This document shows positions 2,469-15,558 of a DNA stretch of 15,558 nucleotides, piece after piece; positions within the stretch are counted from its first letter, which is position 1, and each line of letters starts with the position of its first letter. The DNA is from Ilumatobacteraceae bacterium. Lineage in GTDB: Bacteria; Actinomycetota; Acidimicrobiia; Acidimicrobiales; Ilumatobacteraceae. A model generated the notes under the pieces. It was given only the letters and a program-made list of their open reading frames with translations. It had not been told where the DNA came from and made no database searches. A program made the translations under genes and the position numbers. The stretch covers positions 1 through 15,558 of the forward strand of contig JAENVT010000186.1 in the NCBI GenBank assembly GCA_016650435.1, read 5' to 3'.

Positions 2469-3875
2469 ATGAGCAGCGGCCCTCGATTCCGATTCGCGCC
2501 ATCGCCGACCGGCTTCTTCCACGTCGGCGGAGCGCGTACGGCGCTGTACAACTGGGCGCTGGCCAATCGTCTCGGCGGCACCTTCGTACTGCGGATCGAA
2601 GACACCGACGAGGCCCGCAACCAGCCAGAATGGACGCAGGGGATCATCGAAGCGCTCGACTGGCTCGGCATCAAGGCCGATGCCCCGGCGTTCGAAGGTC
2701 CCTACTTCCAAAGTCACTATGCCGAGGCACATCTCGCTGCGGCCGAGCGACTGTTCGAGGCCGGGGCGGCGTACTACTGCGACCTCACCTCGGAGCAGAT
2801 TCAAGCGCGCGCCAAAGCGACCGGCGCCAGTGGATACGACGGTTACTCCCGAGACCGCGCCCTAGGCCCTGGGCCCGGTCGGGTGCTTCGCTTCCGAATT
2901 CCAGAGGGTGCAACAACGGTGCACGACCTTGTGCGCGGCGATGTGGTTTTCGAGCATTCGACGATCGAAGATTTCGTGCTGGTGCGTGGCAACGGGACAC
3001 CGATGTTCCTGCTCGCCAACGTCGTCGACGACATGGAGATGCGCATCTCGCACGTCGTGCGCGCCGAGGAGCACCTTCCGAACACACCAAAGCAACAGCT
3101 GTTGTGGCAGGCGCTGGGGCACGAGCCGCCGGTATGGGCGCACGTGCCCCTGCTGGTCAACGAGCAACGCAAGAAGTTGTCGAAGCGGCGCGACAAGGTG
3201 GCTGTCGAGCAGTACCGGGCAGAGGGTTTTCTCGCCGAGGCGATGGTCAACTATCTGATGACGCTGGGATGGTCGCCGCCGGGCGACGACGAGATCGTTC
3301 CGTGGTCGGCGATCGAACGCGACTTTCGACTGGAGGACGTCAACCATTCGCCAGCGTTCTTCGATGTGAAGAAGCTCACGGCGTTCAACGGCGAGTACAT
3401 CCGCAAGCTGTCGACCGGCGAGTTCATCGCCGCCTCCGAGCCGTTCCTCCGAGCCGACGGCGTGCCATGGCCCCCCAACCGATTCGATCCGGCCAAGTTC
3501 GCCGCATTGGCCCCCGTCGTACAGTCGCGAGCCAACACATTGGCAGAGGTACCGGGTGTCATCGACTTCGTCTTCCTGGCCGATCCGGTTGTCGACGAGC
3601 AAGCCTGGGACAAGACGATGTCGTTGCCGGGCTCCAAAGCGGTGCTCGCCGAGACGACCGAGGCGTACCGAGAACTGACACAATGGGATGCAGCTGTCCT
3701 CAAGGACACGGTCGAGGCTGTGGGCGAGAAGCACGGTCTGAAGAAAGGTAAGGCACAGGCGCCGATTCGCGTCGCCGTCACCGGGCGAACCGTCGGGCCA
3801 CCATTGTTCGAGGCACTCGAGGTGCTGGGGCGGGAGGAAGTGCTCAGGCGGTTGACGATGGCGGCATCGGCGTGA
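2469..3875 (+). CDS. gltX: Glutamyl-tRNA synthetase (class I)
   Basis: This 468-residue protein has the length and layout of bacterial GluRS, which attaches glutamate to tRNA-Glu using ATP. The N-terminus carries [19 protein letters not shown] with the class I HIGH-type signature at residues 18-21 (HVGG). The KMSKS-type loop is KLSKR at residues 236-240. [10 protein letters not shown] (41-50), [16 protein letters not shown] (191-206) and [15 protein letters not shown] are typical active-site blocks. The ATG at 2469 is preceded by a weak GGGTGG site, and the spacer 2401-2468 has a GC-rich imperfect hairpin that may separate it from the dehydrogenase gene. It overlaps the next gene by four bases (GTGA), so the two are probably co-translated. 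Many actinobacteria lack GlnRS, and their GluRS also charges tRNA-Gln; the tRNA-Gln and tRNA-Glu genes just downstream fit this but do not prove it. Confidence 0.96.
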
Positions 3876-4591
3876 GCGATCTCGATCCTCTGTGGGGCCA
3901 CACTCCGGCGCACGGAACCGCGGCCGTCGCGTTCGCCGACCCGACGCCGGTGGGCGGTATCCCAATCGCTCGACAGCGCAACTGGCCACGCCGTCTCCTC
4001 GTCGGCGGCATCGCGTTCGTGTTGCTGTCCATCTCGTACTACACCGTGACCCTCTATCAAGTGCATTCGGTGGGACGCAGCGATCAGGCCCGCCCGGTCG
4101 ACGCCATCGTCGTGATGGGTGCCGCGCAATATGACGGTCGCCCGTCACCGCAACTCGCGGCCCGGCTTGATCATGCAGCAGACTTGTGGTCAGCGGGCGT
4201 CGCCAAGGTGATGGTCGTCACCGGCGGCAATCAACCAGGCGACCGATTCACTGAGGCCGAAGCATCGGCCGACTACCTGATCGAACGCGGTGTACCGGCC
4301 GAGGCGATCTTGCAGGAGTCGCGCGGGCACAGCTCGTATGCCTCGCTGGACGGAGTCGCCACGATGTTGCATCAGCGCGGACTGTTCCGCGTTCTGCTGG
4401 TCAGCGATCCGTTTCACTCGTTGCGCTCACGGTTGATCGCCCAAGAACTCGGACTCGTCGCCTACGTGTCGCCGACGCGCACGAGCCCGGTGCGAGGCAA
4501 AGAGGCGACCGCAAAAGAGATGCAAGAAGCCGCCGGAATCGCCCTCGGACGGATCATCAGTTTCAAGCGATTGCTGTCGATCACCGGCTGA
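3872..4591 (+). CDS. YdcF/SanA-like DUF218 membrane-anchored protein
   Basis: The 239-residue protein starts with a GTG that overlaps the gltX stop codon by four bases, so it is probably translated by coupling. A proline-rich N-terminus of about 38 residues is followed by one hydrophobic segment (about 41-62) with basic residues before it, so the rest probably faces outside. The DUF218 domain runs from about residue 75: [20 protein letters not shown], then [13 protein letters not shown] (112-124), [16 protein letters not shown] (127-142), [10 protein letters not shown] (149-158) and [13 protein letters not shown] (174-186). These match the YdcF/SanA family, whose better known members affect envelope integrity and vancomycin tolerance; the chemistry is poorly defined. 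The domain is complete. A link with gltX other than shared transcription is not evident. Confidence 0.85.
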
Positions 4592-4830: not shown

Positions 4831-4906
4831 GGCCCCATCGTCTAGTGGCCTAGGACACCACCCTCTCAAGGTGGCGGCACGGGTTCGAATCCCGTTGGGG
4901 CTGCCA
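4831..4906 (+). tRNA. tRNA-Glu (anticodon CTC), integration target of the island
   Basis: The acceptor stem is GGCCCCA (4831-4837) against TGGGGCT (4896-4902), with a G-T pair at the end. The D arm lies at 4840-4856. The anticodon stem CCACC/GGTGG (4858-4862 and 4870-4874) encloses loop CTCTCAA, giving anticodon CTC at 4865-4867 (reads GAG, glutamate). The T arm ACGGG-TTCGAAT-CCCGT is at 4879-4895. The discriminator is G and CCA is encoded (4904-4906). The 3' part from 4862 onward is duplicated perfectly at 12283, so this gene is the attachment site of an integrated element, and its 3' end may have been supplied by that element. Confidence 0.96.
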
Positions 4907-4916
4907 ATAAGGCCTG
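4862..4916 (+). repeat. attL: 55-bp direct repeat, copy 1 (within tRNA-Glu 3' part)
   Basis: The sequence from the last base of the 5' anticodon stem strand to 10 bases past the encoded CCA is identical to 12283-12337. Starting at the anticodon loop is typical for tyrosine-recombinase crossover sites in tRNA genes. Sequence diverges at once on both sides of the 55 bases. Confidence 0.93.
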
Positions 4917-4960
4917 CTCAACAGTAGTTTGTTGTTGACTATTGACGCCCTGTCGAGCGC

Positions 4961-4974
4961 GTTTGCTACTGGAT
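4961..4974 (+). repeat. Putative integrase arm site, left end
   Basis: GTTTGCTACTGGAT lies 44 bases inside the attL core. The identical 14-mer occurs at 12155-12168 near attR, with a 12-base copy directly before it, all in the same orientation. Placement at both ends of the element fits arm-type binding sites of a tyrosine recombinase; the function is inferred from position only. Confidence 0.55.
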
Positions 4975-5480
4975 TGATCCGTGCCGCCGACCTCGAGACA
5001 CGACCTCGAGGCTCCTGTTAGGGGTCGAAGCGGTTACATCTCAAGTACTGGCCGCAAACGGTGAGATATCGAGCACAGCCTGGAGAGCCAGGAACGTACG
5101 CCAGCCGCTCATCAGAGCGAGGCAGCCGACGGTGCGAAGTCGTGCTGCGCCGCGCGTCAACTATCCCAGACAGGACATTGGTGATGCTCGTGCCACCTAG
5201 TCGGCGCGCATTCTGGGACACCCGAGAGTGCGGAGCGCGGAACGCCGGCTCCGTGTCTGTCGCCACCATTCACAGTATGTCCGGCTCGATCGTCTGGATC
5301 ACGGACGCCGGTGAGCGAATCGCGTGGTCACCGGAATAAGCGCCGATCTGTGCTCTCGGGCTGGGGGACCGTCGTGCGCAAACGCTGGCGATTGGTCAGA
5401 TGCCCGAAGTTTCGCGAACGGCGCATCGGAGGTTCGTAATCATGCCTTGGGCCCCGAAATCGCGCGCAACCGACGCGAGC

Positions 5481-5499
5481 CCGATTCTCGTGGAATCGG
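5481..5499 (-). terminator. Hairpin downstream of the giant minus-strand gene
   Basis: CCGATTC (5481-5487) pairs perfectly with GAATCGG (5493-5499) around a five-base loop, about 40 bases past the stop codon of the minus-strand gene. No T run follows on that strand, so it would be a U-poor terminator of the kind seen in GC-rich actinobacteria, or merely a stable RNA end. Confidence 0.35.
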
Positions 5500-5539
5500 C
5501 GACGTTTGCACTCGCCGCTACGGATTGGTCATCGCGGGG

Positions 5540-8500
5540 CTACGGAGTCCCTGGAGGCGCAGGGAACTCGGGGCACGTGGCTCGGTAGCCGCCGAGATCG
5601 CCGATGTACGTCGACCACTCGTCGCGTGTCAGGTTGCGTCGAGCGACCGAGCACGCCGCAGTTACCCAATGCTCCGGGTTGAGATCCCACACGGCCGCCC
5701 CATCTACCCTGAGGGAGGGAATGACCGCCTCGACCCCGTCTTCACGGAGGTCGACCGGCGCGTTGGTTCCGGGCCGTCCGACCGGTGCGGCATCACCGAG
5801 GCGAACGCGGGTGCGGACGTCGTACATCGAGAGAGTTCCATCATCGCCCGATGCGAGTAAGACGTTGCCGTCTTCGGAGAACCGAAGTTGCGAAACGAAC
5901 CCGCGTGCTCCTGCGAGCGAGGCCGTCTGGACGAGCGTGTCGGGTTCGTAGATGCCGATACCGCCGTCGTGCGCCGAGGCCACGAGGACGCCTTGTGGAC
6001 TGATGGCCACGTTGCCGAGGCTGCGGTTGTTGCTGCTGGCGACGACCTCGCCCGTTGTAGCGTTGAGGGCGTACAGACCTTGCCCGGAGACGTAGATCCG
6101 GGAATGATCGTCGGTGATGACCACGTGTTCGACCTGTCTCCCGTCGCCGGAGAACCTCACGACGGTTTCGCCGGTCGCCACGTCGAGTTCGACGACGTGC
6201 CCGTCGGAATAGCCGAGCAGTAGGAGGGCGCCGTCGCGACTGATGTTCTTGGCCGACGGCATGTCGTCGCGATTCAAGGGGTACCCAAACGATCGACGTT
6301 GTTTCGTGGTGACGTTGTACGTGCCGATCGTTCCATCGCTGAAAGCGCCGTAGATGATGTTCCCCTGCCCACCGCCCCAGACGATGTCTGGAAGGGCCTG
6401 CGTCAGCGTGTCGGAGGCCGTGTCCCACAGCGCGTAGTCGAGGTCGAACGGCGGAACGCCGCCGTTCGGTTTACCTACTAACACCGTCTTGCTATCGGCC
6501 TGCGCCGAGATGAGGACCCGACCGGCGGCGACGAGTCGCTGGATGGGGCCCCCACCGTCCACTCGCCAGCGACCGATGAGTCCGGCTTCGCCGTCGACGA
6601 CGACGAGAATGCTGGCACCACCGACATCCATCAGCTCGAGACTCTGGCTGCTGCCGCGCTGGCTCTCGATCGTTCGGCCGGTGATCTCTCCCGTCGCCAG
6701 TGATCGCTCATGGATGACGCCGAAGTTGGTGCCGCACCACAAGCGGTCCATGGCCAGCGAGAAGGTCCATTCACCGCATTCACTAATCCCTTCGTCGCTA
6801 CCGTTGATGCTCCATACCACGCTCCTGGTGGGGAGATCGATCCGGGCGATGGAGATTCGCGGAGCATCCGTCAGAGGATCCCTGATCCGACCGCGGGCCA
6901 CGAGCGTTCCCCCGTCGGGGCTGAACTTCATCAAGCCACCTGTCGAATCGTCCGGCACCTTGATGTCGGCCACCATGTCGAACGTCACCGGATCGAACAC
7001 GCGGAGATGGTCGGCGGTCGAACCGAGATACAAGCGGCCGTCGGGTCCATAGCCGAGGGCGCCGGTCAATCCAGGGTCCGCGTGGGGTTCGTATGCCAGC
7101 GCGGGGAGCTCAGCCACCACCTTGCCGCTGCTCGTGTCGTAGACAGTGGCCGCACCCCGGTCGTCCGCACCAATAGCAAGCTGTGCCCCGGTGGCGTCGA
7201 CGGCGACCATCGACCACGCGGTCGTGCCGGAGAGCTCGATCGTTCGACCGATCTTGCGCCCGGTGGAGAGATCGAATGCTGCAGCAACGCGGTGCAGCCC
7301 ATTCGGACCGAATTCTTCCTCCATGGCGGCGGCAACGCGGCCGCTGGTGCTGACCTCGATCCACTGACTGACAACCGTCCCCTGCATAATCGCCTCGAGC
7401 TGCACTCCTGCATCCCCCGACAGCACGTCGACGACTTGACCTGGCTCGAATCCGGGCTCACCGTTTCTCTTCGAGCTGGTGACGACAAGCTTGGTCATCC
7501 CGGGAATTGCAACAGCCGCAGTATTAGCGCCGGCGAAGTGGAGATAGCCGAGGAACCCCGGGTCGAAGGTGAAGGTTCCGAACAGGGCCGCCTTCGACGT
7601 CACCTTGGGCGATCGTCGCCAGGCCTCCACGGCGAGCAGAGCGGCGAGGTCGCGTTGCGACGAACGCAACGAGAGCAAACGACTGGCGAGGGTCGTCTGC
7701 TCTGCGCTGACCTCTGCGGTTCGGGCGTTCTGACGCTGGGTGAACGCGATAGCGCCCGCCACCAGTGCGAGTGCGAGTAGGCATGCCGTCGTCGTCAGCA
7801 GCCGCCGCAAGCGGCGCGCCGTGCGACGCTCGCGGTCTCGAACCGCGTCTCGGACGGTACGGCTGGCCTCGACGAAGGAGCGCTCTTCCGCGTTGAGCTG
7901 ATCTCCTCGCTCCGGGAGGGCTTCGAGGACGCCTTCGAGGCGTGAGCCGCGGTAGAGCTCTCCGTCGGGTCGACCGGCCTCGTCCCAAGTCCGCGCTGCG
8001 GTTGCGAGGTGTTGTAGTTGGGCGAGCCATCGACGGTCGATCTCCAGCCATTCGCGCAGCCGTGGCCAGTTGCTGAGCAGCGCTTCGTGGGCGACCTCGA
8101 TCACGGGCTCGCGGGTGGCGAGGTCGCGGTCGGCGACCAGCAGTCGGGCTTCGACGAATCGGTCGGCGACGGCGCGCTCGGGTTCTGACAACTCCCCGAA
8201 GCGGGCCCGCCGGCGAGTGTCGGGAGTGCCGTGGCCCGGTGCGACCAGCCTGCCGAAGAGCTGACGGGTGTGAGCTTTCATTTCCTCGCTGAGTGCTCCG
8301 TAGATGGCTTCGGCCCGACGCCCGATTGCACCGCCGAGGCCCCCAAGCTGCTGAAAGGTTGTGGCGGTGATGTGGTTGTCGACGCGACGCTCGTACATCT
8401 CCGCCACTGCGAACTGCAGCAGCGGCAGCCCGGCGGGTTGGGCGTTCGTCTCGGCCACGATCGCCGTGACGACGCCTTCCTCGAAGGTGGCGCCGTACCG

Positions 8501-10699
8501 TTCGGCCGGTCGGACGATGGCCTGCTCCAAGGACTGCGGGCTCAACGGAGGCACGGCGAACGTTCCATCCGCGACCAGCTGGCCGATCAACCCGTGCTGC
8601 AGCGGTCTGTCATAGAGGTCAGCTCTGACCGTCGCCACGCAACGGATCCCGAACTCGCCGGCAACCAGAATGGTGCTCAGGAACCGCTCTCGTTCGGCCG
8701 CATCGGCGAGGGTCCAGCATTCCTCGAACTGGTCGACGATCAACACGATCGGACCGGCGCCGTCACCGACCGCGCCGCTGAACCAGTCGGCCGGATTGGT
8801 CGTCGAGTTGTCGGTCGCGGCGATCTCGCGGAGCGCTTGACCCAACGCGACGGTGGGTCGATCACCCGGGACCATCGTCGCCACTCGAGTACCGCCGTGA
8901 CGAAGCAGCGGTATCAGCCCGGCATACACCAGCGAGCTCTTCCCGGACCCGGATGGGCCGACCACGGCGACGAACTTCTTGGCGGCCAGCGTGTCGCGCA
9001 ACGCGACGGCGACGTCGGCACGGCCGAAGAAGTCGGCGGCGTCTGCTTCGCCGAAGGCACGGAGACCCTTGTACGGGTTGACCGTCGACGTCACCTCGGT
9101 GCTCAGCGCCCGAGCCGCCCGCCGTCGTGACGAGTCAGGTTTTGCCAATTGCGAACCCAGGGGGGTCAACACGCCCCCCGGCCGACCAACGGCGTCACGC
9201 CAGGCGACGATGAATTCGGCCAGCGAGTCGTATCTCGCTTCAGCTCGCGGTGCGGTTGCCGTAGCGAGGACGGCATCGAGCAGCTCGCACCGCTCCTCGA
9301 TCAAGCCGGTGAGGCTCGGCAGGCGGGAGCTGGTCGGGGTTTGCATCAACGTCAACGGCGACCTCCCGGTGAGCAGCTCCCAGAGCATGCAGCCGAAGCT
9401 GAAGATGTCGGACTGAACGGTGTCACCTGTGCGGTCGGAGAGCTCCGGTGGCCCATACACCCGGGTACGATCTCTCGCCAGGGATTGCGTCCAGGATGTG
9501 ACGGCAATGCCGAAATCCGACAGGTAGGCGTTCCCCGTCTCGTCGAACAGCACGTTCGACGGCTTGATGTCGCAATGCACGACTCCGGCGGCGTGGGCTG
9601 CCAACAGACCGCTGCCGACCTCTTCGACGACGCGGCTGACACGCGCCACACTGAACGGACCGTCGCTCGCGAGAGCGCCGAGTGCGGTGCCTCCCGTGAG
9701 GAGACGGAACACGAGGTAGGCGCCGCCCGGTTCGCGCCAGTAGTCGTACAGCGGAACTATGTGGGGATGTTCGAGCCTGGCAACCAGCTGTGCCTCGGCC
9801 TCGAACCGTTGAATGAACTCCGGGCTGTCCACCAGTTCGGGACGGATCGATTTGATCGCCACCTCACGATTCGTGCCCGGCTGCGTCGCCGCGAACACCC
9901 GACCGAACGCACCCTCGCCGAGCACCTCATGGACGGCGTAACCACGCAGCAGCCTGGCCCGACCACTCACATTGGCAACCGGGGCACCTGACGCCAGCGA
10001 GCGTTCCAGCGCGACCAGATCGTCGGAAGGATCCAGCCCCGTCTCCTCGGCGAGCCGAGTGCGAAACGCCTGGTAGGCGCGCAACGCGTCGGCTCGGCGG
10101 CCGGTGCTGAACAACGCCCGCATCAGCAACGACACGGGCCGCTCGCGCAACGGATGATCGCCGGTCAGCCGCCCCAGCTCGGGAATCGCCCGATGGTGAT
10201 GGCCGAGGGCAAGGAGCGCCTCGGCTCTCTCTTCCAATGCGACAACCCGCAACTCGCTGAGCCGATTGGCCTCGGTGAGCACCCACCACTCTCCGCCGAA
10301 CTCGCCGTACGGGCTGCCGCGCCACAAAGCGAGCGCTCGATCGTACAGCTCGACAGCCCGCCCGGGCTCTGCGATCCCAGCCGCCGAGAGCAGTTCCTCG
10401 AACTGTTGTGCATCGACCAGCGAGTCACCGAGGTCAAGCTGATACCCACCCGGAACCGTTGTGATCGACGATTCGAGGAGCGCCCCACGAAGCCTTGACA
10501 CGTAGGTCATCACTGCTCGTGGCGCACCATCTGGTGCCAGCCCATCCGGCCACAGGCACTCAACCAGGCGATCCACAGAGATGGACTGTCCCGGCCTTGA
10601 CAACATGAGGGCGAGGAGCCGTCGTTGCTGAGGACCACCAACGCTGACAACGACATCGTCAAGTTTGGCCTCGACCGAACCGAGCACCCCAAAGCGCAT
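5540..10699 (-). CDS. SARP/BTAD - Ser/Thr kinase - nSTAND1 NTPase - TM - WD40 fusion protein
   Basis: This 1719-residue protein strings signalling modules together. Residues 1-90 form a winged-helix SARP DNA-binding domain and about 95-240 a BTAD helical domain. A Ser/Thr kinase follows at 253-500: GEGAFG loop (261-266), Lys283, HCDIKPSN (375-382; HRD arginine replaced by Cys), DFG (395-397) and GPPE. The nSTAND1-type NTPase begins with NPYKGLRAFGEADAADFFGR (541-560), with Walker A GPSGSGKSS (581-589) and Walker B IVLIVDQFEE (651-660). One hydrophobic span lies at about 968-987 behind a run of arginines, so the N-terminal modules should be cytoplasmic and the WD40-like region (about 1040-1719) outside. 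The C-terminus NLTRDEWSTYIGD is the cap typical of nSTAND1-WD40 proteins. The ATG at 10697-10699 follows GGGAGG by five bases, fixing the start. The streptomycete AfsK kinase and AfsR regulator are separate proteins with related modules. A sensing or defence role is inference. Confidence 0.9.
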   Translation of the reverse strand: MRFGVLGSVEAKLDDVVVSVGGPQQRRLLALMLSRPGQSISVDRLVECLWPDGLAPDGAPRAVMTYVSRLRGALLESSITTVPGGYQLDLGDSLVDAQQFEELLSAAGIAEPGRAVELYDRALALWRGSPYGEFGGEWWVLTEANRLSELRVVALEERAEALLALGHHHRAIPELGRLTGDHPLRERPVSLLMRALFSTGRRADALRAYQAFRTRLAEETGLDPSDDLVALERSLASGAPVANVSGRARLLRGYAVHEVLGEGAFGRVFAATQPGTNREVAIKSIRPELVDSPEFIQRFEAEAQLVARLEHPHIVPLYDYWREPGGAYLVFRLLTGGTALGALASDGPFSVARVSRVVEEVGSGLLAAHAAGVVHCDIKPSNVLFDETGNAYLSDFGIAVTSWTQSLARDRTRVYGPPELSDRTGDTVQSDIFSFGCMLWELLTGRSPLTLMQTPTSSRLPSLTGLIEERCELLDAVLATATAPRAEARYDSLAEFIVAWRDAVGRPGGVLTPLGSQLAKPDSSRRRAARALSTEVTSTVNPYKGLRAFGEADAADFFGRADVAVALRDTLAAKKFVAVVGPSGSGKSSLVYAGLIPLLRHGGTRVATMVPGDRPTVALGQALREIAATDNSTTNPADWFSGAVGDGAGPIVLIVDQFEECWTLADAAERERFLSTILVAGEFGIRCVATVRADLYDRPLQHGLIGQLVADGTFAVPPLSPQSLEQAIVRPAERYGATFEEGVVTAIVAETNAQPAGLPLLQFAVAEMYERRVDNHITATTFQQLGGLGGAIGRRAEAIYGALSEEMKAHTRQLFGRLVAPGHGTPDTRRRARFGELSEPERAVADRFVEARLLVADRDLATREPVIEVAHEALLSNWPRLREWLEIDRRWLAQLQHLATAARTWDEAGRPDGELYRGSRLEGVLEALPERGDQLNAEERSFVEASRTVRDAVRDRERRTARRLRRLLTTTACLLALALVAGAIAFTQRQNARTAEVSAEQTTLASRLLSLRSSQRDLAALLAVEAWRRSPKVTSKAALFGTFTFDPGFLGYLHFAGANTAAVAIPGMTKLVVTSSKRNGEPGFEPGQVVDVLSGDAGVQLEAIMQGTVVSQWIEVSTSGRVAAAMEEEFGPNGLHRVAAAFDLSTGRKIGRTIELSGTTAWSMVAVDATGAQLAIGADDRGAATVYDTSSGKVVAELPALAYEPHADPGLTGALGYGPDGRLYLGSTADHLRVFDPVTFDMVADIKVPDDSTGGLMKFSPDGGTLVARGRIRDPLTDAPRISIARIDLPTRSVVWSINGSDEGISECGEWTFSLAMDRLWCGTNFGVIHERSLATGEITGRTIESQRGSSQSLELMDVGGASILVVVDGEAGLIGRWRVDGGGPIQRLVAAGRVLISAQADSKTVLVGKPNGGVPPFDLDYALWDTASDTLTQALPDIVWGGGQGNIIYGAFSDGTIGTYNVTTKQRRSFGYPLNRDDMPSAKNISRDGALLLLGYSDGHVVELDVATGETVVRFSGDGRQVEHVVITDDHSRIYVSGQGLYALNATTGEVVASSNNRSLGNVAISPQGVLVASAHDGGIGIYEPDTLVQTASLAGARGFVSQLRFSEDGNVLLASGDDGTLSMYDVRTRVRLGDAAPVGRPGTNAPVDLREDGVEAVIPSLRVDGAAVWDLNPEHWVTAACSVARRNLTRDEWSTYIGDLGGYRATCPEFPAPPGTP

Positions 10700-10704
10700 C
10701 CCAG

Positions 10705-10710
10705 CCTCCC
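10705..10710 (-). promoter_or_regulatory. Ribosome binding site of the giant fusion gene
   Basis: On the minus strand GGGAGG stands five bases before the ATG at 10699. It is one of the few strong Shine-Dalgarno sequences in the window and decides the start of the SARP domain. Confidence 0.75.
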
Positions 10711-10722
10711 AAGTCCTCTGAT

Positions 10723-10773
10723 GGATCGTAAGGCATCGTCACAGAACGCGTTTACAGATCGTCAACAACGCGT
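10723..10773. promoter_or_regulatory. Candidate SARP operator: phased heptamer repeats in the divergent spacer
   Basis: Five heptamer-like units end in CGT at near-helical spacing: GGATCGT (10723-10729), GCATCGT (10733-10739), AACGCGT (10745-10751), AGATCGT (10756-10762) and AACGCGT (10767-10773). The steps are 10, 12, 11 and 11 bases, and the two AACGCGT copies are exactly 22 apart. SARP regulators are known to bind direct heptamer repeats at 11- or 22-base spacing. The site lies between the SARP-containing gene and the protease gene, so autoregulation and co-control are plausible but inferred. Confidence 0.45.
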
Positions 10774-10870
10774 CTTGCGACTCGACTCGACCCCAGCGTG
10801 CAGCGATGGTGTTGACGAACTGCAACCCGCTGTCGCGGTCTTGTGAGGCTTTCCCGCTCACGGTGCAGGC

Positions 10871-11758
10871 ATGGCAACCAAGTTCATCTCGTACGCAATC
10901 CTGTTCGCGCTGCTGGCCGGAGACGGACTTGCGGGGAACGTCCCGACCGCGGCCGCCGAGCCCGCGGTTGGAGTCGATCCAGTCATCGATGTGCCTGCCC
11001 CCTGGGTCTGGCACACAGAAGACGGGGTGCGCCGCGGTGGTCGTGCCGCCCGGATCGAACTCGACAACGCCGACCTCAACACCGCAATGTCCGTGTGGTA
11101 CCGGCTCGCCTACGTCGACGGTGGCAGCCGCCTGCAAGTCTTCGAGCACTACGCCGCTACCACCCGAGATCCTCAATCTGACATCGTGCGGAGCGAGAAC
11201 CTGGCCTGGCGCCTGGCCAATGAAGCACTCGGAGCAGACAGCGATCTTGCATCATCCAACCAACTACCAAGCTGGGCCCGCGTCCGGACCGGCAACGACA
11301 GCGGATCCTCAGCCGGGTTGATTTTCACCCTCGCCTACATCGATCTACTGACTCCAGGAAAACTCGTCGGCAACCTACGCATCGCCGGCACAGGTGGCGT
11401 CGGGTCCGACGGAGTCGTCACCCCGGCGTCAGGGCTCGACGCCAAAGTCGCTGCAGCCGTGCTCACCCGACCCGACGTGATCTTCACGACCAGCGCGCCA
11501 GAGTTGATCGAGCATGTCACCATCGTCGAATCTCAGCACACCCGCAACCCCGACGTCGGCTTCACCGTCGGCGAATGGCTCAACGTCAGCGGATACGAAC
11601 AAGCAGGCCGAAAGGCTGCTGGCCACCCAGGAACCATCGCCGTCATCGTCGTTCACGACCTCCGACAAGCACTGGCGTGGCTGTGCGGCCGCACCAACAA
11701 CATCATCACGTGCGCAGCCGCCCGCAGAACCGCAACCATCCCCATCGGAACGATCTAG
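10871..11758 (+). CDS. Exported Lon-like serine protease (peptidase S16 domain)
   Basis: The 295-residue protein begins with a hydrophobic stretch and a signal-peptide-like end (AAA-EP, about residue 30). The only in-frame ATG after an upstream TGA is at 10871. From about residue 135 it resembles the proteolytic domain of Lon: GNDSGSSAGLIFTLAYIDLL carries the presumed catalytic Ser147, followed by GNLRIAGTGGVGSDGVVTPA and GLDAKVAAAVL with the presumed catalytic Lys192. The Ser-Lys distance (45) is close to that in Lon (43 in E. coli). There is no ATPase domain, so this is a Lon-like domain working outside the cytoplasm, as in some actinobacterial secreted or PDZ-linked S16 proteins. Cys272 and Cys281 could form a disulfide after export. 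It is divergent from the giant STAND gene, 171 bases away, and is the only other cargo gene of the island. Its substrate is unknown. Confidence 0.72.
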   Translation: MATKFISYAILFALLAGDGLAGNVPTAAAEPAVGVDPVIDVPAPWVWHTEDGVRRGGRAARIELDNADLNTAMSVWYRLAYVDGGSRLQVFEHYAATTRDPQSDIVRSENLAWRLANEALGADSDLASSNQLPSWARVRTGNDSGSSAGLIFTLAYIDLLTPGKLVGNLRIAGTGGVGSDGVVTPASGLDAKVAAAVLTRPDVIFTTSAPELIEHVTIVESQHTRNPDVGFTVGEWLNVSGYEQAGRKAAGHPGTIAVIVVHDLRQALAWLCGRTNNIITCAAARRTATIPIGTI

Positions 11759-11766
11759 CTCGCACC

Positions 11767-11783
11767 CGCGCGTTCTGCGCGCG
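11767..11783 (+). terminator. GC hairpin after the protease gene
   Basis: CGCGCG (11767-11772) pairs with CGCGCG (11778-11783) around TTCTG, nine bases after the TAG stop. There is no T run, so it is at best a U-poor terminator. Confidence 0.35.
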
Positions 11784-12142
11784 TATCTCGTGACCACCAG
11801 CTTGTCCGTACGCGGAACAACACGCACGGAGCACATCTAGCGCCGGGGGTCTGCTCGCTGCCACGAAAGGCTGCGGAAGGGCGCCCGCCATCACGGACCC
11901 TTACGATCGGATGCCATAGCGGTGATATCGAGCGAATCCAATCCTCGTGTGGTAGGCGGCGAGTTCCTCGTATCAAGCAACGCGCAGCCGGTGCCGCCCT
12001 GACCAACCGCTGACGCCGGGCACCACGGCCCTCACATGGCACGCAGGTGAGGAAGAGGCCGTCACGGGTGTCTGCCACAGCGCTCAATCCACCGACCGGC
12101 GGGGGTATTGACCGTTGGTGAGCAGCACGCACCAGAGAGAAT

Positions 12143-12168
12143 GTTTGCTACTGGGTTTGCTACTGGAT
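12143..12168 (+). repeat. Tandem putative integrase arm sites, right end
   Basis: GTTTGCTACTGG (12143-12154) is directly followed by GTTTGCTACTGGAT (12155-12168); the latter is identical to 4961-4974 at the left end. They lie about 115 bases inside the attR core. In an excised circle the core would be flanked by two sites on one side and one on the other, an asymmetric layout known for tyrosine-recombinase attP sites. Confidence 0.55.
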
Positions 12169-12282
12169 CGGCAGGTATGCCCGTCCAGGTCAGAGCCCGT
12201 CTGTTGATCGTGCAGTATTCTGAGCTGGTACATCACAACACAGGGCAGTCCTGGGCAACACTCGATGGACGCAGGGCAACTT

Positions 12283-12337
12283 CCTCTCAAGGTGGCGGCA
12301 CGGGTTCGAATCCCGTTGGGGCTGCCAATAAGGCCTG
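12283..12337 (+). repeat. attR: 55-bp direct repeat, copy 2 (tRNA-Glu 3' fragment)
   Basis: Identical over 55 bases to 4862-4916. It contains the anticodon loop, T arm, 3' acceptor strand and CCA of tRNA-Glu, but the upstream sequence cannot form the D arm or the 5' acceptor strand. It is a tRNA fragment, not a functional gene, and marks the far end of the island. Confidence 0.93.
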
Positions 12338-12376: not shown

Positions 12377-12574
12377 GTGAGCACTGGGGTAGACGCGGTG
12401 CACGGCGACGATACGCAGTTCGGCACCTACCAAGTTGGCGAGTTCGGCGGCGTGCTCGACAGCCGCTCCGGCACTGTTAGGGGGACGATTCGTGTCCTCT
12501 CTAAGGACGCCGGTCGTCGTCTGCTCGCAAATCGCTTGCAGAATGTGGTGCTAGACCATTGCGAATGGGTTGGG
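12377..12574 (+). other. Probable coding stretch in another frame, upstream of the patatin gene
   Basis: From the GTG at 12377 a frame with strongly GC-rich third positions gives about 60 plausible residues, including GTYQVGEFGGVLDSRSG and GRRLLANRLQNVVLDHCEW. Past about 12565 the same frame becomes arginine-rich nonsense, while the frame of the patatin protein takes over. One missing base in the GGTTGGGC run near 12569 would join the two into one protein with an N-terminal extension. An in-frame stop (12356-12358) precedes the GTG. It may be a mutation, an assembly error or a separate short gene. I do not recognise the segment. Confidence 0.4.
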
Positions 12575-14703
12575 CATTCGAGGGTGACGAGGGTCTCTCG
12601 TTTTCGGCGTTGGTCCTCACAGCGGACACAAACGCCCCCCAGGTGGCGGCAACCATGTATCGCCAGCTCACGGCGCGTCCTTCGACCGGGTACACAACTC
12701 GCGTCTTCACCTCGTTCGATGTCACCGGCACAGACCTTGTTGACGATATCAATCGAGCGGCCGCCAGTGTTCCCGAGCGCGGCTATACGTTGTGCTATGT
12801 ATCCGGACGCCATCAGCTGCTCGCCGATGACATCGTCGTGGCAGGTCCGCCGCCCACCACACTGAGCCAAGTCCTCACGACGTTGCTTCATTCATCCTCG
12901 CCTTTTGGACTCCTGGTGTTAGTCGACCACTACGGTGAGGGCGACGGACTTCACGCAGCGACCGTAGGGGCGCTCGCGAGGGCAAGCATCGCCTGTCCGT
13001 GGTGTCTGATCTCAGAAGCAGTCGATGTCGAGGTGATCGATCCCACTCACACTCCGTTGCTCGAGGCACTCGGTCACGGCCTCGGGGACGAAGGACCGAC
13101 GCACACCGCCCGGTGGTTCCGAGCGGCGGATCTGCATAGGCAAGGATCCCGGTTCGCTGCCGATCGAGGACTAACACCTCCCATGATGACCGCCACCGCG
13201 TCCGTTTGGCTTCCCGTCGGATTTGTGGAGCGGGCCCCGACCGGCCCGGAGTTCGACGAGCGGTTGGAGCTTGCCCTGTCCGGTGGTGGCTATCGTGCTT
13301 CTGCCTTCTCGCTCGGATCGCTGCTCTACCTTGTGCACTCTGGTCTGAACAAGCGCGTCGATTCGATCGTCTCTGTATCCGGGGGTTCGATCACCAACGC
13401 TTGGATTGCCCAGACCATTGACTATGCCAAGCTCAACTCCGCGGAGGAGTTCGCGCCGTGCGCTCAAGGGCTCGCTTCTCATCTTTGCCGAACCAGCCTG
13501 GTGTCGCTGAAGAACGTGTACTTCGCGCTCTGGTTGGCTCTACTGGTGGCCGCGGTTGTATTCGCCGGCACGAGGATTGTTGCTGACTGGCCATTGAGTC
13601 GTGGCGATTTGCCTGTCCTGGTTGCGACCGTGCTTGCGGCTGCGGTAGTTATTCAGGCTCGAGGTCACGTAGTCACGCGTTGGCTCGCGCGGAACTACTG
13701 TCGGTCGGCGCAATACCAGAGGATCGGTGACCTCGCGGACCGAACGGTGGACCATGTCATCGCCGCGACCGATCTTTGCACCGGTGAGCCGTTCTGCATG
13801 TCCGGCCGTTCGAAAGGACGAACGTTTAGCCCTACCTGGGGTCTTCGTCCCGGCCGATCAGTCCGGCTTTCGACTGCCGTTCGCGCCTCGACTGCCCTTC
13901 CTCCACTCATGCCTCCGGTCCGACTCAAGCTTGAAAGCTGGCCAGACCAGGTAGGGGAACCACGCGCAATATGGCTTACAGACGGTGGAATCTGGAACAA
14001 CCTCGGTACCGATTGGAGCCGATTCCGCTCCGAGATCTTGAGCGCCGAGTGGACCCGCATCAGCAATGCCGAAGGGGTCACCGCTGCGATAATGGCGGCC
14101 GACGGCGCAGCTCCGTCCGGTGGCGTCCGGCTGGTGATTGACGCATCCGCACCATTGATCCATCGACGAATGCGAACTTTATGGATTCCCGTGCTTTCGA
14201 CTCTGGACACCGCACTGCGAGCGATGCTCACCTCGTACGCAAGCACAGTTGCGGCGCGTCGGCCCGCGCTCACAGCGGCACGCGACCGGATGATTCTCAA
14301 CCCGGAGCGGTGGCATGTGGACTGGCCCCAACCCCCCATGACCTGGAATGAGACGCCTGGTTCATCGCCTCCGCTCGAACTCATCGTCGGGATGGTTGGG
14401 CCGGGCGAGATCGCGGACAATTGGACAAGCTCGGGCCTAGGCACCCACTGGGACCAAATCGGAGCCTCCTACAGGGCCGAACTGTCACAAGCCGAACAGG
14501 AGTTGGCGCGGATACGAGGTGACAGGCCGAAAGCCGCGACGACGCTGAATGGTTTGGGTACCAACGTCGTACTGCAGTTGGTCGTCGATGGCTACCTCGC
14601 AACGCGAGAAACTCTCGTGACCGCTTTCGAGAATCACAGCGCGCCGGCCATACCCGATACCGCATGGTTCGACCGAATGATCGGTCTAAGAGATTCCGGC
14701 TGA
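12559..14703 (+). CDS. Patatin-like phospholipase with degenerate caspase-like N-terminal region and internal membrane hairpin
   Basis: The frame gives 714 residues from a TTG at 12559; an ATG at 12565 is also possible, and neither has a ribosome site. Residues 236-480 carry the patatin signatures: LALSGGGYRAS (oxyanion hole, 238-248), SVSGGSITN with the presumed nucleophile Ser274, IAATDLCTGEPF, and TDGGIWNNLG with the presumed Asp475. Two hydrophobic segments (about 320-337 and 351-366) lie between Ser and Asp, so the lipase would be membrane-bound. Residues 13-175 resemble a caspase-like fold: CYVSGRHQLLADD sits where the SGHG-type His motif would be, and LLVLVDHYGEG where D-C-x-S-G would be, with the catalytic Cys missing. 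Patatins cleave acyl chains from lipids, and some act as effectors in bacterial defence; that role here is inference. The upstream coding stretch in another frame suggests a disrupted N-terminus. Confidence 0.82.
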   Translation: MRMGWAFEGDEGLSFSALVLTADTNAPQVAATMYRQLTARPSTGYTTRVFTSFDVTGTDLVDDINRAAASVPERGYTLCYVSGRHQLLADDIVVAGPPPTTLSQVLTTLLHSSSPFGLLVLVDHYGEGDGLHAATVGALARASIACPWCLISEAVDVEVIDPTHTPLLEALGHGLGDEGPTHTARWFRAADLHRQGSRFAADRGLTPPMMTATASVWLPVGFVERAPTGPEFDERLELALSGGGYRASAFSLGSLLYLVHSGLNKRVDSIVSVSGGSITNAWIAQTIDYAKLNSAEEFAPCAQGLASHLCRTSLVSLKNVYFALWLALLVAAVVFAGTRIVADWPLSRGDLPVLVATVLAAAVVIQARGHVVTRWLARNYCRSAQYQRIGDLADRTVDHVIAATDLCTGEPFCMSGRSKGRTFSPTWGLRPGRSVRLSTAVRASTALPPLMPPVRLKLESWPDQVGEPRAIWLTDGGIWNNLGTDWSRFRSEILSAEWTRISNAEGVTAAIMAADGAAPSGGVRLVIDASAPLIHRRMRTLWIPVLSTLDTALRAMLTSYASTVAARRPALTAARDRMILNPERWHVDWPQPPMTWNETPGSSPPLELIVGMVGPGEIADNWTSSGLGTHWDQIGASYRAELSQAEQELARIRGDRPKAATTLNGLGTNVVLQLVVDGYLATRETLVTAFENHSAPAIPDTAWFDRMIGLRDSG

Positions 14704-15204: not shown

Positions 15205-15558
15205 TTAGTCGTTCCCATTGCCATGATCTTTCTTCTTCTTGTCATTGCCGGGGCTCGTAGTTGCGGTCGTGGAGGTGGTCGCCACTGCGCCATTGCTGAC
15301 GTTGAGCGTCACTGTTGCCCCTGGGGGGACCTGCCCGCTGGGATCGACACCCGTCACGATGCCCGCGGGTACGCCAGCGGCGTCGACCGGGTTCAGTGCA
15401 ACGACAAACCCCGCTGTAGTCAACAGATTCGACGCATCTTGCGTGGAAAGACCTATGAGAACATTCGGGTCGACAGTTGCAGCGACGACCGGTGCCACGG
15501 TCGGTGGCGTGAGATCAAGCGGCTGGGTTGCGTCAGCGCTATGGAACAGCACGATGAC
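15205..15558 (-). CDS. PASTA-domain protein, C-terminal end (5' part outside window)
   Basis: On the minus strand 117 residues are visible before the TAA at 15205-15207, and the frame is open to the window edge. A proline/valine linker leads to one PASTA domain (DPNVLIGLSTQDASNLLTTA, then VDPSGQVPPGATVTLNVSNG), followed by a Thr/Ser stretch and a charged tail with KKKK. PASTA domains bind muropeptides or beta-lactams and occur at the C-terminus of penicillin-binding proteins and of PknB-type kinases. A single C-terminal PASTA domain with a short charged tail fits a class A penicillin-binding protein better, but the diagnostic part lies outside. An internal GTG at 15552 is probably not the start. 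Confidence 0.72.
   Translation of the reverse strand, partial: VIVLFHSADATQPLDLTPPTVAPVVAATVDPNVLIGLSTQDASNLLTTAGFVVALNPVDAAGVPAGIVTGVDPSGQVPPGATVTLNVSNGAVATTSTTATTSPGNDKKKKDHGNGND

What the first reader, a model, noticed from the sequence alone, without database searches (positions are those of the whole stretch)
4862..12337. Two-gene island in tRNA-Glu carrying a giant SARP-kinase-STAND-WD40 protein and an exported Lon-like protease
A perfect 55-bp att repeat delimits 7.4 kb whose only recognisable cargo is a multi-domain signalling protein and a divergent secreted S16 protease. STAND NTPases are established in bacterial anti-phage immunity (Avs and related systems), and compact islands in tRNA genes often carry defence cargo. 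A membrane-spanning sensor with its DNA-binding domain inside and its propeller outside, paired with an extracytoplasmic protease, could form a sense-cleave-respond module. That pairing as one mobile unit is not one I know as described. The function is inference.
Basis: partly seen in the sequence, partly recalled or inferred. Interest (0 to 1): 0.82.

Follow-up and report, generated by a model that had tools for sequence, protein, structure and literature searches.

The report
tRNA island: membrane regulator plus protease
A 7.4-kb DNA island sitting in a tRNA gene of an actinobacterium carries just two recognisable genes, a giant membrane-spanning switch protein with a DNA-binding head and an exported Lon-like protease; the two recur together in related sequences and look like an outside-to-inside signalling module, not a proven defence system.

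Summary
An exact 55-bp repeat (4862-4916 = 12283-12337) starts in the anticodon loop of an intact tRNA-Glu. It encloses a 1719-aa SARP-kinase-nSTAND1-TM-double-propeller protein and a divergent 295-aa S16 protein with the Lon Ser/Lys dyad. Three exact GTTTGCTACTGG repeats just inside the ends look like integrase arm sites. In 13 relatives with tRNA-Glu the left flank is conserved and neither gene lies downstream. No integrase was recognised, so the island resembles a cis-mobilizable element.

The pairing is real but loose. Five further contigs, matched by exact contig length, appear to hold both proteins (0.33 expected). None of 79 giant loci from reference genomes has the S16 gene.

SARP-type operators are well supported: exact heptamers 11 bp apart precede 11 of 46 SARP genes of this kind (0.69 expected, 0 of 1000 shuffles). 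The window has the 22-bp variant (37 of 2000 shuffles).

Best reading: a one-protein transmembrane transcriptional switch that controls itself and probably the protease. Defence is unsupported. The giant is a new variant of AfsR-like regulators; the island type is known.

The parts
4831..4906 (+). tRNA-Glu (CTC), intact; integration target
   Evidence: ARAGORN; Rfam RF00005
4862..4916 (+). left 55-bp att repeat (anticodon loop to 10 nt past the tRNA 3' end)
4961..4972 (+). GTTTGCTACTGG, putative integrase arm-type site inside the left end
   Evidence: exact; 3 matches in window against 0.02 expected; the role is inference
5540..10699 (-). 1719-aa giant: SARP wHTH+BTAD (23-234), Ser/Thr kinase (254-450, HCD motif), nSTAND1 (542-912), TM (967-985), tandem beta-propellers (about 1050-1673), C-terminal tail with conserved Cys
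10700..10870 (.). 171-nt divergent promoter region shared by both genes
10745..10773 (.). AACGCGT ... AACGCGT, heptamer direct repeat spaced 22 bp (degenerate AGATCGT between), candidate SARP operator, 46-74 nt before the giant's start
   Evidence: 37 of 2000 shuffles have a repeat at 11 or 22 bp
10871..11758 (+). 295-aa probably exported Lon-like (S16) serine protease, dyad Ser147/Lys192, Cys272/Cys281
12143..12154 (+). GTTTGCTACTGG, putative arm-type site inside the right end
12155..12166 (+). GTTTGCTACTGG, second, head-to-tail copy
12283..12337 (+). right 55-bp att repeat (displaced tRNA-Glu 3' end)
2469..4591 (+). conserved chromosomal left flank: gltX and DUF218 protein (then tRNA-Gln)

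Best explanation
A former integrative element, reduced to its attachment sites and two cargo genes, sits in tRNA-Glu. The giant is a single-pass membrane protein: two beta-propellers outside read an extracellular or envelope signal; the nSTAND1 ATPase and the kinase inside act as the switch; the SARP domain then binds direct repeats in the shared promoter and drives transcription of itself and of the exported S16 protease. The protease processes a secreted or envelope substrate, which may be the very signal that the propellers read. Inferred: topology, operator function in the window, control of the protease gene, direction of signalling, and the link between protease and receptor.
For: Domains and TM. 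Kinase K283, D377 and DFG, Walker A K587 and Walker B D656 are in 24 of 24 rows, protease S147 and K192 in 28 of 28. RRTARRLRR before the TM gives inside-N, outside-C by the positive-inside rule (recalled rule; sequence); planctomycete membrane kinases with WD40 arrays are likewise predicted kinase-inside, WD40-outside (PMC11032199, passages). C-terminal model (pLDDT 73, pTM 0.53) is mostly beta; WD-repeat proteins fill the PDB list and Apaf-1 has the highest TM-score by model length of the 50 rows shown (0.53, rank 30 by E-value, rmsd 9.3). Pairing: 5 exact contig-length coincidences against mean 0.33, maximum 2, in 120 shifted controls; distances of the 6 pairs correlate (r 0.67, 23 of 720 permutations). 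Operator: exact heptamers 11 bp apart in 11 of 46 regions upstream of SARP genes from the fetched loci, next spacing 3 of 46, shuffles mean 0.69, 0 of 1000 reach 11; a 22-bp pair in the window, 37 of 2000 shuffles. SARP repeats are described as 11 or 22 bp apart (PMC10936776, passages). Island.
Against: Most giants seen have no S16 neighbour, so the giant can work without it. The pairing elsewhere rests on equal contig lengths, not on DNA that I could read; orientation there is unknown. In the window the exact repeat is at 22 bp, while the other regions show 11 bp and none 22. No clear -10 box at the described distance and no sigma-70 promoter match. The S16 fold rests on a low-confidence model; the window S16 protein has no segment above the TM threshold. 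No target or signal is known.
Confidence: 0.5

Rival explanations
1. Anti-phage or conflict system: the STAND protein senses an invader and the protease is the effector or its maturase, carried as island cargo.
For: [quoted passage not shown] compact tRNA islands often carry defence cargo (recalled); HCD instead of HRD in the kinase of 14 of 24 rows, non-RD kinases being common among immune receptors of plants and animals (recalled).
Against: The 25 PADLOC families shown for the giant (of 33) match its kinase region, and the S16 protein has none. The propellers and the protease appear to be outside the cytoplasm, where STAND phage sensors such as Avs do not act (recalled). No nuclease, NADase or pore-forming effector was recognised. 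The SARP head points to a transcription output.
Confidence: 0.1
2. Two unrelated cargo genes: the giant and the S16 gene are both frequent in this lineage and meet by chance in accessory regions.
Against: Five coincidences against 0.33 expected, three contigs where the two genes take 82-87% of the DNA, and a modest correlation of divergence. The lists show 120 of 262 S16 hits and 120 each of 2663 and 4420 giant hits, so the counts are lower bounds.
Confidence: 0.27
3. The island is a live, non-autonomous mobile element moved by an integrase encoded elsewhere, not a decayed one (a question apart from what the two genes do).
For: Exact 55-bp repeat and putative arm sites kept at both ends.
Against: No second copy, no integrase and no tandem arm sites found: 0 of 221 genomes of the family. 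Intact att sites are also expected after a recent decay.
Confidence: 0.13

Closest known systems
AfsR and other large SARP-STAND regulators (Streptomyces)
   Same: SARP wHTH+BTAD at the N-terminus, then a STAND NTPase; control by Ser/Thr kinases; direct-repeat operators 11 or 22 bp apart (PMC10936776, PMC5930380, passages)
   Different: Here a kinase is in the same chain, the STAND is nSTAND1, and a TM segment and two propellers replace the TPR domain; NCBIfam AfsR scores 140.6 against a cut-off of 1430
Membrane Ser/Thr kinases with external WD40 or propeller domains (Planctomycetota, actinobacteria)
   Same: Kinase predicted inside, WD40 outside, single TM (PMC11032199, passages); actinobacterial kinases fused to propellers are mentioned in PMC7159879 (passages)
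   Different: The passages seen mention no SARP head together with an nSTAND1 switch and no S16 partner
nSTAND1-WD40 proteins with HTH or trypsin heads
   Same: Same nSTAND1 to propeller stretch; matched on 753 plasmid records, some annotated helix-turn-helix or trypsin-like
   Different: Head domains differ; no plasmid record covers 80% of the giant
SepM/YlbL-type extracytoplasmic S16 proteases
   Same: S16 motif region, Ser/Lys dyad, hydrophobic N-terminus; SepM cleaves a signal peptide (PMC11197336, start of abstract in the listing; YlbL recalled)
   Different: The window protein matches SepM only over residues 140-210, 36 bits against a cut-off of 200; Pfam reports no PDZ domain
Cis-mobilizable elements (CIME) and tRNA islands
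   Same: attL and attR kept, integration and transfer genes gone (definition in PMC5704250, passage); tRNA gene regenerated and its fragment displaced (PMC4383910, start of abstract in the listing)
   Different: Only two cargo genes; no related full element was found
Apaf-1
   Same: STAND ATPase followed by two WD40 propellers (recalled); best TM-score by model length among 50 PDB rows
   Different: TM segment between them; SARP and kinase instead of CARD; no sequence-level kinship claimed

Membership tests
tRNA-integrated genomic island | intact tRNA gene at one end, displaced 3' fragment at the other | tested here: met
tRNA-integrated genomic island | absent at the same site in relatives | tested here: met
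   0 of 13 relatives with a found tRNA-Glu have either gene downstream (tblastn E 1e-8); a 14th shows no tRNA in the stretch held; downstream stretches 3.4-15.7 kb. The relatives are other species at 73% gltX identity or less
tRNA-integrated genomic island | own integrase | tested here: not met
   ORF list and Pfam of the two genes, no integrase recognised; small ORFs in the end regions were not scanned one by one
CIME | att sites kept, integration and transfer genes lost | tested here: met
   with the same limit on small ORFs; whether the att sites work was not testable
SARP regulators | Trans_reg_C plus BTAD | tested here: met
   both above curated cut-offs
SARP regulators | direct-repeat operator 11 or 22 bp apart | tested here: inconclusive
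   for the kind: met, 11 of 46 regions; for the window itself: 22-bp repeat, 37 of 2000 shuffles, no matching -10 box
AfsR (equivalog) | score above NCBIfam cut-off | tested here: not met
   140.6 against 1430
nSTAND1 NTPases | nSTAND1 domain with Walker A and B | tested here: met
   349.2 bits, cut-off 27.1; motifs
Lon-like S16 proteases | S16 fold with Ser/Lys dyad | tested here: met
   dyad 28 of 28; SepM_fam_S16 28 of 28; Lon_C 14 of 28 at E up to 0.1; Foldseek Lon hits, weak. Activity not testable
SepM family | score above NCBIfam cut-off | tested here: not met
   36.3 against 200
Known anti-phage systems (PADLOC) | full set of system proteins | tested here: not met
   the 25 of 33 families shown for the giant match its kinase region; none for the S16 protein

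The most novel reading that the evidence does not exclude
A portable outside-to-promoter module: a single-chain transmembrane receptor with an Apaf-1-like pair of external propellers, a STAND switch, a non-RD kinase and its own DNA-binding head, transcriptionally coupled to a secreted Lon-type protease that matures or destroys its ligand, so that a whole sense-cleave-respond circuit travels as one two-gene island.
Probability: 0.2. Interest if true: 0.78.

Novelty: new variant of a known kind. Interest (0 to 1): 0.54.

Why it matters
It would show that the AfsR-type SARP-STAND switch has been rebuilt into a membrane receptor that carries a signal from outside the cell to a promoter in one polypeptide, and that exported Lon-like proteases outside the SepM family may act in signalling. 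The giant family is large (2663 and 4420 hits in two capped searches). My searches of open-licence papers showed no title or passage that describes this architecture or pair; of the listed papers I looked at passages of PMC8195603, PMC10907252, PMC7159879 and PMC11032199 only. The 11-bp repeats before 11 of 46 such genes make self-regulation directly testable.

Tried and rejected
S16 family in reference genomes: the genome-contig scan confirmed none of 20 pattern matches. In 12 genomes reached through giant loci, 9 had matches of at best 9e-15 over parts of longer frames, which I read as generic S16 or Lon proteins. 1 distant relative in 221 genomes of the family at E 1e-20 (G141; its contig is 4.7 kb; the same genome has a giant fragment on another contig). 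0 of 397 in the order at E 1e-18, where at most 6 candidates per genome were scored and the tool warns that nothing rang. Viral contigs: none for either protein. Plasmids: no S16. Phages: 30 records hit by the giant, none covering 80%.

Arm sites: four viral contigs have the tandem 11-mer, in DNA without a tRNA and with no integrase motif seen by a crude pattern; 0 of 221 genomes. So the arm-site reading stays inference. A decayed second tRNA copy was considered for the right repeat and rejected because its anticodon stem cannot form. The patatin gene right of the island lies outside the repeat and has no counterpart in the relatives' loci; its status is left open. tRNA beside giants: one tRNA-Gly, at the end of L009, in 21 loci scanned.

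Operator counts: the first count used 20 regions with typed match starts (5 loci at spacing 11). A second set of 49 (6 loci, 0 of 300 shuffles; 2 of 300 when 11 and 22 are pooled) turned out on checking to have wrong gene starts in many loci, because truncated or extended rows of the alignment fixed the start. It is superseded (20 rows with a common start, 46 regions, 11 loci). Nine of those 11 lie before genes that the giant query matched, two before other SARP genes (L020, L021). In one search spacing 11 also leads for 8-mers with one mismatch (18 of 46, next 7) and 6-mers (14, next 6). Because of this mended result I raised the best explanation from 0.45 to 0.5 and lowered two rivals.
Full report
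What is there. The window carries part of an NAD-glutamate dehydrogenase gene, gltX, a DUF218 gene, tRNA-Gln and tRNA-Glu. From the anticodon loop of tRNA-Glu an exact 55-nt stretch (4862-4916) is repeated at 12283-12337. Between the copies lie two recognisable genes: the 1719-aa giant on the minus strand (5540-10699) and the 295-aa S16 gene on the plus strand (10871-11758), divergent with 171 nt between. In the end regions, 4917-5539 and 11759-12282, I recognised no gene; their small ORFs were not scanned one by one. GC is 0.648 in the island against 0.632 and 0.611 beside it, so composition does not mark it as foreign.

Is it an island? In 397 genomes drawn from the order of G003, the gltX protein is closest to G001 (73%) and G062 (72%); both are in the family searched around G012, the genome of L022, titled Ilumatobacter. 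The NCBI names given for two S16 and several giant homologues read Ilumatobacteraceae. I fetched the gltX loci of 14 genomes. All 14 have gltX and DUF218 together; 13 have tRNA-Glu after them (in the 14th no tRNA was found in the 2.9 kb held), 12 of these with tRNA-Gln between DUF218 and tRNA-Glu (on the other strand in L116) and one with tRNA-Arg instead. None of the 14 has the giant, the S16 gene or the patatin gene in the stretch held. So the two genes are an insertion at this site relative to these relatives. The stretch right of the island is also without counterpart there. Three exact copies of GTTTGCTACTGG, one 44 nt inside the left repeat and two head to tail ending 116 nt before the right repeat, are the only matches in the window even with one mismatch; 0.02 are expected. 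Their placement and direct orientation are what arm-type sites of a tyrosine integrase look like (recalled), and I read them so, but no element with an integrase and these sites was found. With both ends kept and no integrase seen, the closest term is cis-mobilizable element, defined in PMC5704250 (passage) as an element that lost integration and transfer genes but kept attL and attR.

The giant. SARP head, kinase, nSTAND1 (349 bits), one hydrophobic segment 967-985 preceded by an Arg-rich stretch, then a mostly beta region. Kinase Lys283, Asp377 and DFG and the STAND's Walker A Lys and Walker B Asp are kept in 24 of 24 aligned rows; two Walker A positions and the hydrophobic Walker B positions vary. 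The HRD motif is HCD in 14 of 24, including this one. The C-terminal 740 residues, modelled with nine homologous stretches, give pLDDT 73 and pTM 0.53; WD-repeat proteins fill the PDB list, and Apaf-1 has the best TM-score by model length of the 50 rows shown, 0.53, though it ranks 30th by E-value. Four Cys lie after the TM; C1322 is in 24 of 24 rows, C1683 and C1709 in 23, as in exported domains with disulfides (inference).

The protease. 262 homologues, the best 120 listed, after the window's own at 57-75% identity. Ser147 and Lys192, the Lon dyad, are in 28 of 28 aligned rows, as are Cys272 and Cys281. 27 of 28 pass a mild test for a hydrophobic N-terminus; the window protein has no segment above the stricter TM threshold. 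One homologue carries a bacterial cadherin/Ig-like stretch before it (P0102; 1 of 10 long homologues scanned), which also points outside. The structure model is of low confidence, with Lon proteases at the top of the list.

Do they belong together? No neighbourhood tool was open for the metagenomes that hold most homologues, so I compared the contig lengths printed with each protein. Among 120 S16 and 165 giant rows, five exact coincidences besides the window appear (6888, 7418, 7457, 13071, 28146), with agreeing or overlapping sources; 120 shifted controls give mean 0.33, maximum 2. On the three shortest contigs the two genes would take 82-87% of the DNA, so they would be neighbours. The pairs span 62-67% (S16) and 41.5-60.6% (giant) identity to the window, and their distances correlate, r 0.67, 23 of 720 permutations. 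Against this: of 79 giant loci from GTDB genomes none has the S16 gene (80 best of 241 were kept, about 35 of the 79 include the SARP head, and several loci are short), of 46 S16 contigs of at least 6.2 kb only 5 match a listed giant, and the two closest giants (77% and 66%, contigs 889332 and 18383) match no listed S16 contig. Each list is cut at 120. In the family, 17 of 221 genomes have a giant at E 1e-100, with two candidates scored per genome.

Regulation. The shared 171-nt region has AACGCGT at 10745 and again 22 bp on, with a degenerate copy half-way. Exact heptamer repeats at 11 or 22 bp occur in 37 of 2000 dinucleotide shuffles of it. The same question was put to the regions upstream of SARP genes in the fetched loci. 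With gene starts set by 20 rows that share the window's start, 46 non-redundant regions of up to 200 nt were obtained; 11 hold exact heptamers 11 bp apart, while no other spacing from 7 to 45 is found in more than 3; shuffles give mean 0.69, maximum 4, 0 of 1000 reaching 11. Nine of the 11 precede genes matched by the giant query. The 22-bp spacing is in none of the 46. PMC10936776 (passages) states that SARP repeats are 11 or 22 bp apart; PMC5930380 (passages) describes heptamers with 4-nt spacers. So the SARP heads of this kind of protein very probably bind DNA and many act on their own promoters. For the window itself the case is weaker: one 22-bp pair, no clear -10 box at the described 8 bp, no promoter match. 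An earlier version of the count had faulty gene starts and is withdrawn.

Mechanism and verdict. AfsR, the closest studied protein, is held off by its NOD and TPR parts and released by ATP, with phosphorylation opposing the release (PMC10936776, passages including part of the abstract). By analogy the giant would turn an outside event, read by the propellers, into SARP activity on the shared promoter, raising its own level and that of the exported protease. Whether the protease makes or destroys the signal is open. Kinase-inside, WD40-outside membrane proteins are already described in Planctomycetota (PMC11032199, passages), which supports the topology and limits the novelty to the SARP head, the nSTAND1 switch and the partner protease. 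Defence remains possible but has no specific support. I file the island as CIME-like, the giant as a new architecture among SARP-STAND regulators, and the protease as an S16 subfamily outside SepM. Literature searches returned no title or passage describing the architecture or the pair; they cover open-licence papers only, and I looked into passages of four of the listed papers.

Noticed in passing
window 12559-14703: Patatin-like phospholipase with two hydrophobic segments directly right of the island; no counterpart in 14 relatives' loci.
   Followed up: partly
window 15205-15552 (-): Short ORF with a PASTA domain.
   Followed up: no
upstream of SARP genes in L005, L016, L018, L020, L021, L027, L029, L035, L122, L134, L141: Exact heptamer direct repeats 11 bp apart, mostly 60-120 nt before the start: candidate autoregulatory SARP operators across several genomes.
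   Followed up: yes
L008 5390-15950: Two giant SARP genes in tandem in one MAG.
   Followed up: no
P0065, P0106, P0108, P0093, P0092: Some long S16 homologues end in repeats like RGLIPRQALEPAP, and most of these in a common tail IPCSELVYTxC.
   Followed up: no
P0018, P0029 N-termini against window 10764-10826: N-terminal extensions of some S16 homologues resemble a translation of the window's intergenic DNA, hinting that this promoter region is conserved.
   Followed up: no
L110 8711-11162: In one relative tRNA-Gln and tRNA-Glu are 2.3 kb apart, so another insertion or rearrangement at this site.
   Followed up: no
contig lengths 191980, 26100, 7631 (proteins): Two S16 homologues share one contig length each, so the gene may often be multi-copy.
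   Followed up: no
L088 1285-2373: Distant 362-aa S16 relative beside an ORF that looks like an IS3-type transposase, in genome G141, which also holds a giant fragment.
   Followed up: partly
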